A stretch of 64,000 nucleotides of DNA, from positions 496,001 to 560,000 of the forward strand of contig NC_020193.1 of NCBI RefSeq assembly GCF_000315915.1, written 5' to 3'. The stretch is from Henningerozyma blattae CBS 6284. Taxonomy: Eukaryota > Ascomycota > Saccharomycetes > Saccharomycetales > Saccharomycetaceae. Below the pieces are notes generated by a model, which had not been told where the DNA came from, searched no databases, and saw nothing but the letters and a program-made list of their open reading frames with translations. Every line of letters starts with the position of its first letter. Position 1 is the stretch's first letter. Shown here piece after piece: positions 37,425 through 39,962 of the stretch. Both the position numbers and the translations under genes were made by a program.

Positions 37425-39962
37425 ATGGGGAGAGGCGCTGAAGACATTAACAGGGCCATCCGTAAGGCATTATCTGTGGACGAAGCTCCACCTAAGAGGA
37501 AACACGTAAGAGCAGTAGTATTATTTACATGGGATAACAAATCTGCGAAGCCAGTATTTGATATCTTGAAGAATGGGGCATTTACAGGGGATGATATTCA
37601 ATTATATAAGATGTTATTTTTGATTCATAAAGTGATCCAAGAAGGTCATGAAAGCACTTTGAAAGAAGCTATTAGAAATAGAGAATGGATTAGATCATTA
37701 ATCAACACACACCATAATAATTCTATTGAAGGTTCGGGTTCCTATGACCGGTTAATCAATGGATATACAAGATTATTGTTGGATAAATTGGCGTTTCATA
37801 ATTTCCATTCAGGTTTCAAAAATGGTGCTTTTGAACATCAAGAATATGTCACCTTGAAATATATTAATGATCCCAACGAAGGGTATGAGACTATTATGGA
37901 TTTGATTAGGCTAGAGGATTCTATTAATAAGTTTCAAAAGGAAGTCTTTATGTCTGTAGATAGATCATCAAATCCAAACACAAGTTTAAAACTAGTCACT
38001 TTAGTTCCTTTAATTTCTGAATCATTTGGTATATATCAATATATTGTGAACATGATCACTGCAATTCAAAGTCAATTGGCTGATGAAGATTCTATTTTGA
38101 ATTTGAAAAGAAATGCCTTGGACATCCACGAAATATTATTCAATTTTTTTGCCGATTGTTCGACTGTAAAGGAAATTGATACTTTGGTCACTATACCAAA
38201 ATTACCAAAGGAACCACCTGATTTCTCTTCAAATTTTGATGAAGAAGTTGAACATATGCCTACCAATTTAGATTTGAATAAGGGGAAGGATACTAATAAT
38301 GAAATGTTAATTGATTATACTGACTCACCACCACCACCAACACCAGCAAGAAGACCAAGAACTGAATCACAATCCACTGCTGCTACTACAGCAGTTTCTC
38401 CACCCGTAGTGCCAGCTCAACGTCCAAGAGCCAATACTTCTTCCACTCCAGTGGCCAACCCTCTCACATCACCTCCTCCAAAGACTACTACACCAGCTTC
38501 TGCTCCAAAATTGATCCCCATTGCAAAGACAGGAGGAACTAACAAGACAGTTATTATACCGATTCCAATACCAACAGGTGGTGCCAATCCAATGGCTGCT
38601 GCATTAACAGGAGGTATTAACCCAATGGCTACAGCTTTAACAGGTGGTATCAACCCAATGAGTACTGCCTTAACAGGTGGTGCCAATCCAATGAACCCAG
38701 CATTAACTGGAGGTGCTTTAGTTACCAAGACAACAGGTGGTGTAAACATTAATATTTTACCTCCACAATTCACAAATGGACCTATGGCTCCTTTAAAACC
38801 AACTTTAACTGCTAGTACTTTTGGGTTACAACCAAATTTAACAAATGCTACGACTTCTCAACCAATACCAACTACATTTGGTTTAAACCCACAATTGACT
38901 TCGGGTTTAAACCCTCAATTGACCTCAGGGTTAAATCCACAATTAACCTCGGGATTAAATCCTCAATTGACTTCAGGGTTAAATCCACAATTAACGTCAA
39001 ATAATGCATTTAACATGCAACCAAATTTGACTTCAAATGCGTTTAATATGAATCCACCTATTAATGCAAATAGTTTTGGCCTTCAACCACAATTAACTTC
39101 TCAACAATTCAATTCCAATATAACACCAATGCAACAACAACATACCAATACAATGATGCCCATGAGTGCTCATTCTTTTGATTTACATGGTCAACCTACG
39201 GGCCAATCTATTAGTGCAATGGTTCAATCTAATTATACAAATAATTCCATGGTACCTCCACAACCACCGACATCTACATTCAATATGCTATCTTTATTAC
39301 CAAATAATACTACTAGTAGTACTACCAATCCCGGTGGTAATGCTTCTGAATTACAACAACGTATTGATCAAGATGAACAATTATTAGAACAATATGATCA
39401 AAGAGTCACCGAATTCGAAACTGAATTGGAAACTAAAAATAAATTATTAGATGAAAAACGAACAGAAATCAATGAATTGAATACAAAATATTCTCACCTT
39501 GCAGATCTTTATTCCCAATTACGTCAAGAACATTTAAGATTGCTACCAAAAGTACAACAGTCTCCAGATGGAGTTATCGATACACTATTAGATGGTTCAA
39601 TCGATACAATTTCTAAATCTTCCGATTGGATTTCCAAAGATATTTTATCAGATCAAGCAACCAAACTTGCTAGTGAAATGAATGATTATATAGTCACTAA
39701 AGGTGATATTAGTGGTGTCACAGTAGCTGTTGCTGAATTTACTACAAGTTTATCACTTCTATCCTCATCAAATACCGGTAATGGTAACCGTTATTTTATG
39801 AATGTTGATCCATCTCTCATCAATAATATTATCTCGGAGGGGAATTATTTCTTGAGTTGTTTGAAATCCGAAAAATTAAATGCATTAGGCGATGATGAAT
39901 CCAAGACAGACGCTGTAATTACTGCCAATATAGATTTCCAAAGAACTTTACAACATTTATAA
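37425..39962 (+). CDS. Sla2-like ANTH protein lacking the actin-binding THATCH domain
   Basis: An 845-residue relative of Sla2/End4 (968 residues in S. cerevisiae). The ANTH domain (about 1-275) is clearly Sla2-type: EAPPKRKHVRAVVLFTWD, KMLFLIHKVIQEGHESTLKEA, then HNFHSGFKNGAFEHQEYVTL. A Pro-rich region follows, then two tandem arrays (385-428 and 486-525). A coiled coil (about 640-709) has the Sla2 motif ETKNKLLDEKRTEINELNTKY and SQLRQEHLRLLPK. The Sla2 heptad section after LLPK is missing. The remainder corresponds to the Sla2 part ending VITANIDFQRTLQHL, where the stop falls just before the C-terminal I/LWEQ (THATCH) domain. Downstream DNA is non-coding, so a frameshift does not explain the loss. 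It should bind PIP2 and endocytic partners but not actin by the usual route. Confidence 0.85.
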   Translation: MGRGAEDINRAIRKALSVDEAPPKRKHVRAVVLFTWDNKSAKPVFDILKNGAFTGDDIQLYKMLFLIHKVIQEGHESTLKEAIRNREWIRSLINTHHNNSIEGSGSYDRLINGYTRLLLDKLAFHNFHSGFKNGAFEHQEYVTLKYINDPNEGYETIMDLIRLEDSINKFQKEVFMSVDRSSNPNTSLKLVTLVPLISESFGIYQYIVNMITAIQSQLADEDSILNLKRNALDIHEILFNFFADCSTVKEIDTLVTIPKLPKEPPDFSSNFDEEVEHMPTNLDLNKGKDTNNEMLIDYTDSPPPPTPARRPRTESQSTAATTAVSPPVVPAQRPRANTSSTPVANPLTSPPPKTTTPASAPKLIPIAKTGGTNKTVIIPIPIPTGGANPMAAALTGGINPMATALTGGINPMSTALTGGANPMNPALTGGALVTKTTGGVNINILPPQFTNGPMAPLKPTLTASTFGLQPNLTNATTSQPIPTTFGLNPQLTSGLNPQLTSGLNPQLTSGLNPQLTSGLNPQLTSNNAFNMQPNLTSNAFNMNPPINANSFGLQPQLTSQQFNSNITPMQQQHTNTMMPMSAHSFDLHGQPTGQSISAMVQSNYTNNSMVPPQPPTSTFNMLSLLPNNTTSSTTNPGGNASELQQRIDQDEQLLEQYDQRVTEFETELETKNKLLDEKRTEINELNTKYSHLADLYSQLRQEHLRLLPKVQQSPDGVIDTLLDGSIDTISKSSDWISKDILSDQATKLASEMNDYIVTKGDISGVTVAVAEFTTSLSLLSSSNTGNGNRYFMNVDPSLINNIISEGNYFLSCLKSEKLNALGDDESKTDAVITANIDFQRTLQHL
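38577..38708 (+). repeat. 33-base coding repeat (GGxNPMxxALT)
   Basis: Four consecutive 11-residue units of the form GG(A/I)NPM(A/S/N)xALT within the SLA2-like protein (residues 385-428). The DNA copies differ mainly at third positions. Confidence 0.9.
38880..38999 (+). repeat. 24-base coding repeat (GLNPQLTS)
   Basis: Five consecutive copies of an 8-residue unit, GLNPQLTS (residues 486-525), identical in protein but varied at silent positions. Flanking relatives are LQPNLT, MQPNLTS and LQPQLTS. Each gives LxxQxT-S, close to the Ark1/Prk1 target LxxQxTG, and a perfect LHGQPTG lies at residues 587-593 (39183-39203). Confidence 0.9.

What the first reader, a model, noticed from the sequence alone, without database searches (positions are those of the whole stretch)
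37425..39962. Sla2 paralogue that has lost its actin-binding THATCH domain
The ANTH domain, middle coiled coil (to HLRLLPK) and the pre-THATCH segment ending INANIDFQRTLQHL are Sla2-type. The stop falls just before the I/LWEQ domain, and the second coiled-coil section is also missing. The downstream 386 bases show no coding remnant. An Sla2 form that binds membrane but not actin would uncouple coat and actin, acting as a regulator or competitor. SLA2 also flanks MAT in many ascomycetes; loss of its 3' end might relate to MAT-linked deletions, but nothing MAT-like is seen here.
Basis: partly seen in the sequence, partly recalled or inferred. Interest (0 to 1): 0.75.

Follow-up and report, generated by a model that had tools for sequence, protein, structure and literature searches.

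The report
Endocytic adaptor without its actin-binding end
In this yeast the only Sla2 gene found, for a protein thought to tie the cell membrane to the actin that pulls it inward, lacks its actin-gripping end and carries a repeat array like those of partner proteins; several relatives are cut at the same point, so their endocytosis may be wired differently.

Summary
ORF 37425-39962 (845 aa) has Sla2's ANTH domain, a long disordered linker, one coiled coil and the REND bundle, then stops; the second coiled coil (reference residues 501-567) and THATCH (726-968) are missing. "Paralogue" does not hold: it is the only Sla2 found in this genome (probably Tetrapisispora blattae, inferred), and no THATCH was found by three THATCH-bearing queries or the Pfam model.

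The truncation is old and shared. Nine short Sla2s (window, T. phaffii, V. polyspora, an unnamed relative, three Zygosaccharomyces-type, Lachancea thermotolerans, L. 'fantastica') end at reference residues 722-728, the end of REND; three other Lachancea keep a THATCH. In addition, 4 of 4 Vanderwaltozyma/Tetrapisispora linkers resemble the LxxQxTG repeat regions of Sla1 and Pan1, against 0 of 21 other Sla2s tested. The window's five contiguous GLNPQLTS units differ at DNA level only synonymously, suggesting constraint.

Best reading: a functional, remodelled Sla2 that keeps membrane and coat binding but no longer holds actin; epsins and Pan1 probably carry that link (inferred from published S. 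cerevisiae redundancy). A new variant of a known protein; not found in the papers searched.

The parts
37425..39962 (+). Whole ORF, Sla2 orthologue without THATCH, 845 aa plus stop
   Evidence: only Sla2-like locus found in the genome
37443..38249 (+). ANTH domain (aa 7-275), with the K14 and K24-R25-K26-H27 positions that are invariant in alignment A1
38250..39329 (+). Disordered linker (aa 276-635) rich in TGG and LxPQLT repeats, similar to Sla1 and Pan1 repeat regions
   Evidence: pLDDT below 50 over nearly all of 270-635; alignment scores with reversed and shuffled controls
38574..38705 (+). Four 11-residue TGGxNPMxxxL units (aa 384-427)
   Evidence: period 33 array; pN/pS 0.35
38880..38999 (+). 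Five contiguous GLNPQLTS units (aa 486-525), identical in protein, different in DNA
   Evidence: period 24 array, 81% DNA matches; 40 synonymous and 0 non-synonymous pairwise differences; wider, loosely chosen unit sets give pN/pS 0.32-0.52
39336..39542 (+). Coiled coil (aa 638-706) with the YSQLRQEHLRLLPK block
   Evidence: single long helix in the model; matches 9hdd_A chain
39555..39959 (+). REND helical bundle (aa 711-845), ending with VITANIDFQRTLQHL
39960..39962 (+). Stop codon at the REND/THATCH boundary (reference residue 725/726)
39963..40348 (+). A+T-rich intergenic stretch with no THATCH remnant, up to the BUD31 start
   Evidence: BUD31 by Pfam PF01125

Best explanation
This is the organism's sole SLA2 orthologue in a domain-lost form shared by its clade: ANTH, a disordered linker with Sla1/Pan1-like repeats, one coiled coil, and REND, without the second coiled coil and without THATCH. 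It most likely still sits on PIP2 membrane in the ANTH/ENTH coat with epsins and still uses its coiled coil and REND for coat partners, but does not itself hold F-actin. The membrane-to-actin link is then carried by the epsins' C-terminal actin-binding region and by Pan1, and the new repeat array makes Sla2 another multivalent member of the Pan1/Sla1/End3 network, perhaps open to Ark1/Prk1-type kinases. Shown here: domain content, absence of THATCH from the searched genome, shared end point, repeat similarity, presence of epsins with a conserved C-terminal block, Sla1, two Pan1-like and two End3-like genes. Inferred: membrane binding, who carries the actin link, and the partner and kinase of the repeats.
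For: Single gene and no THATCH: own protein, P0012, P0093 and P0188 as queries hit only this locus as Sla2, and no match lies in the THATCH part; PF01608 0 hits while PF07651, PF01417, PF01086, PF03983 and PF12763 all ring in the same genome. Clade-wide: T. phaffii P0002, unnamed P0003 and V. polyspora P0004 end at reference residue 725-726; in the 120 best-listed ANTH matches no second V. polyspora or T. phaffii entry appears. Domain-exact: REND intact by fold match to 9hdd residues 567-725. Constraint: T. blattae keeps 21 of 24 near-invariant REND columns and 24 of 28 coiled-coil columns. Repeats: linker scores 122-259 against T. blattae Sla1 SR and 159-241 against Pan1 LR, reversed 77-108, the 21 other Sla2s 29-60 and 45-88. 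Both epsins keep a C-terminal block GTGIDTFGN..RIPAQHT.TGTFINSQGTGYKQ. In S. cerevisiae sla2dTHATCH alone is mild but lethal with ent1dACB ent2d (PMC8628263, passages).
Against: No functional data. The window's ANTH is unusually diverged: 84 of 123 near-invariant columns kept against 108-112 in the three relatives, end branch 1.64 against 0.17-0.32. The window's array has only 1 strict Ark1/Prk1 motif (expected 0.29, p 0.25): its units end TS, not TG, so kinase control is doubtful for this species. Zygosaccharomyces has the same truncation with no such array (0 strict motifs in P0183, P0185 and P0195), so the array is not a required substitute for THATCH. The epsin block is named as the actin-binding region from recall. 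Five-unit synonymous-only result was obtained on units picked by protein identity; looser choices give pN/pS 0.32-0.52.
Confidence: 0.6

Rival explanations
1. Neutral or MAT-driven loss: SLA2 lies beside MAT in non-WGD yeasts, its 3' end was eroded by switching accidents, and the survivors simply tolerate it; the remodelled linker is drift. (About origin; can be true together with the best explanation.)
For: DIC1-MAT-SLA2 order in T. delbrueckii, L. kluyveri and the inferred ancestor, and reported deletion or truncation of MAT-flanking genes (PMC3628578, passages); truncated SLA2 downstream of the Z region read as erosion (PMC6405483, passages); a repeat holding the 3' end of SLA2 beside MAT in W. 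canadensis (PMC6692504, passages). Truncations occur in Zygosaccharomyces and Lachancea, where SLA2 is or was MAT-linked, and in the VT clade.
Against: Chance erosion should end anywhere, yet nine short proteins end within reference residues 722-728; for three independent events that has a chance of about 2e-4 to 5e-4, for two only 2-3%. Also a separate internal deletion of 501-567 removes the second coiled coil. In the window SLA2 is not MAT-linked.
Confidence: 0.35
2. The gene is decaying: without THATCH Sla2 is dispensable and the window copy is on its way out.
For: Fast ANTH evolution in the window.
Against: Intact 845-codon frame; REND and coiled-coil columns kept at least as well as in the relatives; synonymous-only differences among five contiguous repeat units and pN/pS 0.35 in the other array, 0.32-0.52 in looser sets; the relatives keep 108-112 of 123 ANTH columns.
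Confidence: 0.1
3. Gene fission: THATCH survives as its own gene elsewhere and works in trans.
For: Not excluded for T. phaffii, V. polyspora or Zygosaccharomyces, whose genomes could not be searched; protein searches only admitted candidates of 0.55-1.75 times the query length.
Against: In the window's genome no THATCH by Pfam model or by three THATCH-bearing proteins. In fission yeast a THATCH cut off in the cell no longer goes to patches (PMC8738963, first of two parts read).
Confidence: 0.04
4. Assembly or annotation error, or an unassigned exon supplying THATCH.
For: A homopolymer-type frame break is seen in another gene of this genome (clathrin light chain), so base errors may exist.
Confidence: 0.03
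5. One reading: a membrane-only paralogue that competes with a full-length Sla2.
For: Domain content fits such a role.
Against: No full-length Sla2 was found in the genome.
Confidence: 0.02

Closest known systems
Sla2 of S. cerevisiae and its full-length orthologues (End4 of S. pombe, HIP1R/HIP1)
   Same: ANTH fold and sequence (49% identity to 7b2l_B in the fold alignment), first coiled coil with YSQLRQEHL, REND bundle
   Different: No second coiled coil (501-567), no THATCH (726-968); poly-Gln-type linker replaced by TGG and LxPQLT repeats
Short Sla2s of T. phaffii, V. polyspora and unnamed P0003
   Same: Same architecture, same end, same kind of linker
   Different: Different repeat units; ANTH much less diverged than in the window
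Short Sla2s of Zygosaccharomyces, L. thermotolerans, L. 'fantastica'
   Same: End at the same point (722-728)
   Different: Zygosaccharomyces (454-471 aa) also lacks the coiled coil and has no TG array; Lachancea keeps a Gln-rich linker; in these the resemblance to REND is clear only over the last 40 or so residues, and the Zygosaccharomyces bundle was not matched to REND by fold (inconclusive)
Sla1 and Pan1 repeat regions (Ark1/Prk1 targets)
   Same: LxxQxTG-like repeats; alignment scores as high as Sla1 against Pan1 (233)
   Different: No SH3, SHD or EH domains; in the window most units end TS or TN rather than TG

Membership tests
Sla2/HIP1R family | N-terminal ANTH domain of Sla2 type | tested here: met
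   PF07651 E 1.1e-59; best PDB matches are Sla2 ANTH structures
Sla2/HIP1R family | Central coiled coil | tested here: met
   First coiled coil present, aa 638-706; second section 501-567 missing
Sla2/HIP1R family | REND helical bundle | tested here: met
Sla2/HIP1R family | C-terminal THATCH / I/LWEQ actin-binding domain | tested here: not met
   No PF01608 in the protein, none in the genome, none by THATCH-bearing queries. So: an orthologue by descent, not a complete member by domain content
Sla2/HIP1R family | Orthology (position in the Sla2 tree) | tested here: met
   ANTH tree groups the window with T. phaffii, V. polyspora and P0003, 96/90, inside Sla2s; long branch noted
Sla2/HIP1R family | PIP2 binding and F-actin binding | not testable with these tools
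   Needs biochemistry; candidate lipid-binding positions are conserved
Ark1/Prk1 substrate with LxxQxTG array (Pan1/Sla1/epsin type) | Several [LIVM]xx[QNTS]xTG sites above chance | tested here: inconclusive
   Met in T. phaffii (12, expected 0.43), V. polyspora (6, 0.35), P0003 (4, 0.31); not in the window strictly (1, 0.29, p 0.25), met there only with T[GSN] (13, 1.08)
Ark1/Prk1 substrate with LxxQxTG array (Pan1/Sla1/epsin type) | Phosphorylation by Ark1/Prk1 | not testable with these tools
   Needs phosphoproteomics or a kinase assay

The most novel reading that the evidence does not exclude
Several yeast lineages have, more than once and at one exact domain boundary, turned Sla2 from a force-bearing actin tether into a membrane-bound scaffold: THATCH is gone, REND is kept for a job that does not depend on THATCH, and in the Vanderwaltozyma/Tetrapisispora clade the linker has become a Pan1/Sla1-type multivalent repeat array, so that endocytic force is passed through epsin and Pan1 alone.
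Probability: 0.35. Interest if true: 0.8.

Novelty: new variant of a known kind. Interest (0 to 1): 0.62.

Why it matters
Sla2's THATCH domain is the textbook link between endocytic coat and actin. Whole yeast lineages that seem to live without it are a natural experiment on how much of the pulling force must pass through Sla2, and on whether epsin and Pan1 can carry it. REND was described together with THATCH in one structure (9hdd title); its survival where THATCH is gone predicts a role of its own. The repeats offer a testable case of a coat protein joining a kinase-regulated scaffold by gaining short repeats.

Tried and rejected
Rejected: (1) One ancestral truncation carried from a Zygosaccharomyces-like parent of the whole-genome duplication into the VT clade. 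The free ANTH tree joins VT and Zygosaccharomyces (93/87 with the window; 89/83 without it), but the tree that holds VT with the full-length post-WGD rows has a log-likelihood 10.85 higher and p-AU 0.735; unresolved, so I count neither. (2) Two separate losses within Lachancea: the tree suggests it, but holding L. thermotolerans and L. 'fantastica' together is not rejected (p-AU 0.208). The conservative minimum is therefore two losses overall, three to four on the species tree as I recall it. (3) Ark1/Prk1 control as a general substitute for THATCH: fails for Zygosaccharomyces and is weak for the window. (4) Co-loss of the Sla2-binding part of clathrin light chain: no solved relative was found for comparison; left as an observation.

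Led nowhere: Foldseek gave only ANTH/ENTH rows of use; the Zygosaccharomyces model did not bring up REND; PMC5559269 held no passage on Sla1 repeats; paper search for 'REND domain' with Sla2 gave 0 papers. No genomes of relatives could be searched, so dN/dS between species and synteny there were not tested. Torulaspora, Kluyveromyces and Eremothecium Sla2s were not seen by name in the 120 rows listed and remain unexamined.

Rows dropped before the counts: P0184 (669 aa, tail looks frame-broken), P0187 (near-copy of P0185, same end), P0234 (794 aa, unnamed metagenome contig, ends at 731), P0030, P0062 and P0087 (filamentous-fungus models without PF01608, probably incomplete).

Full report

One gene, not a paralogue. 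The genome (14,041,469 bases, 10 contigs; size and contig number fit Tetrapisispora blattae as I recall it, and its nearest named hits are T. phaffii and V. polyspora) was searched with the window protein, N. dairenensis Sla2 P0012, S. cerevisiae-type P0093 and L. mirantina P0188. Each found this locus; the other hits were weak (E 0.0019 to 0.14): antisense repeats, a Gln-rich coil and the YAP180-like ANTH gene. None lay in the THATCH part. PF01608 gave 0 hits, and that search's control genomes are prokaryotes in which it also gave none; but five other eukaryotic families ring in the same genome, among them ANTH with three places (this gene, a YAP180-like gene on contig 2, and an epsin). No remnant lies downstream.

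Shared by relatives. The first protein search (87 hits, scoring limited to the 7996 candidates sharing most words) gave three short relatives: T. phaffii P0002 (822 aa), unnamed P0003 (750), V. polyspora P0004 (805). A search with the V. polyspora ANTH (486 hits, best 120 listed, lengths 443-1409) added short Sla2s of Zygosaccharomyces (P0183, P0185, P0187, P0195), L. thermotolerans (P0186, 707 aa) and L. 'fantastica' (P0198, 625 aa), while L. mirantina, dasiensis and nothofagi and unnamed P0190 carry PF01608 in proteins of 824-847 aa, three of them lacking the reference stretch at about 731-767 and P0190 731-749. Listed Saccharomyces, Kazachstania-type, Naumovozyma and Nakaseomyces rows keep 950-978 aa with PF01608. 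A search with the N. dairenensis THATCH (2418 hits, best 120 listed) showed no row named Tetrapisispora, Vanderwaltozyma, Zygosaccharomyces or Lachancea; many rows have no name. Nine of nine short rows measured end at 722-728. Three independent ends would fall within seven residues by chance in about 2-5 of 10,000 cases, two in 2-3 of 100. The number of independent losses is not settled by the ANTH trees: at least two. For Zygosaccharomyces only the last 40 or so residues align to REND.

A new linker. In the VT clade the linker is a set of short repeats. Strict Ark1/Prk1 motifs ([LIVM]xx[QNTS]xTG, definition from PMC4775215, passages): T. phaffii 12, V. polyspora 6, P0003 4, window 1; the other 30 Sla2s counted have 0-2. 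The window has 13 sites if T may be followed by G, S or N. Against the repeat regions of T. blattae Sla1 (1302 aa, 9 strict sites) and the longer Pan1 (1507 aa, 19 strict sites), the four VT linkers score 122-259 and 159-241; reversed they score 77-108; the 21 other Sla2s score 29-60 and 45-88; Sla1 against Pan1 scores 233. Other low-complexity T. blattae targets score up to 101 with VT linkers. Within the window, five contiguous GLNPQLTS units differ by 40 synonymous and 0 non-synonymous pairwise changes; at least 8 changes are needed, with chance 3e-5 to 3e-4 that all are silent. These units were picked by protein identity, although the repeat finder delimits the same array from DNA; units picked by looser patterns give pN/pS 0.32-0.52, and the 11-residue array 0.35. 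So constraint is likely but its strength is uncertain.

Constraint on the domains. Of columns at least 90% conserved in the 23 non-VT rows, the window keeps 84 of 123 in ANTH (relatives 108-112), 24 of 28 in the coiled coil (20-23) and 21 of 24 in REND (18 of 24 to 19 of 24, and 18 of 25). Its ANTH branch is 1.64 against 0.17-0.32. The window's ANTH is therefore fast-evolving, its C-terminal part is not. No genome-wide rate for this species was available, so the cause is open.

How it would work. In S. cerevisiae, sla2dTHATCH gives a small change in patch lifetime and negligible change in alpha-factor uptake, yet is lethal with ent1dACB ent2d, and pan1dABD makes it worse (PMC8628263, passages). 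THATCH is thus replaceable as long as epsins bind actin. The window's genome has two epsins of 599 and 701 aa that share a near-identical C-terminal block (51% over 130 columns, core nearly identical), which I recognise from recall as the actin-binding region, plus Sla1, two Pan1-like genes (1507 and 1098 aa) and two End3-like genes (383 and 344 aa). That makes loss of THATCH bearable. Isolated THATCH does not reach patches in S. pombe (PMC8738963, first part of two), which speaks against a trans-acting stand-alone THATCH.

Origin. SLA2 sits beside MAT in non-WGD yeasts, and truncation of genes next to MAT is reported (PMC3628578, PMC6405483, PMC6692504, passages). This may have supplied the deletions; selection for an intact REND may then have set where they could end. 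Both are inferences.

Is it in print? Searches for Sla2 with Vanderwaltozyma (3 papers), with Tetrapisispora (1) and with Zygosaccharomyces, Lachancea and 'truncated' (4) gave papers on mating-type loci; I saw passages of three (PMC3628578, PMC6405483, PMC6692504) and did not open PMC4065246 or PMC4827841. None of the passages speaks of a missing THATCH. Subscription papers and preprints are not held, so this is not proof of novelty.

Noticed in passing
G000:C10:413000-419000 (L037) and G000:C10:428000-435000 (L038): Two Pan1-like genes about 18 kb apart on opposite strands; the shorter (1098 aa) stops after the coiled coil and lacks the acidic, proline-rich C-terminal part that the longer (1507 aa) has.
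   Followed up: partly
G000:C5:908000-911500 (L039) and G000:C10:472500-475500 (L040): Two End3-like genes (383 and 344 aa) in one genome.
   Followed up: no
G000:C2:1547096-1547606: The clathrin light chain gene is spread over two overlapping frames, and its N-terminal frame starts just before INEFEENFPEL; whether sequencing error, intron or real change is open.
   Followed up: partly
L. mirantina P0188, L. dasiensis P0189, L. nothofagi P0196: These keep THATCH but lack the reference stretch at about 731-775, the start of the domain, so THATCH is shortened even where it survives.
   Followed up: partly
G000:C1:1728048-1728227 and G000:C1:1881817-1881996: Two MATalpha HMG-box loci with equal scores, about 154 kb apart on contig 1.
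   Followed up: no
window 37425-38249: The ANTH of the window gene evolves far faster than in its three relatives (end branch 1.64 against 0.17-0.32) while its REND and coiled coil do not.
   Followed up: partly
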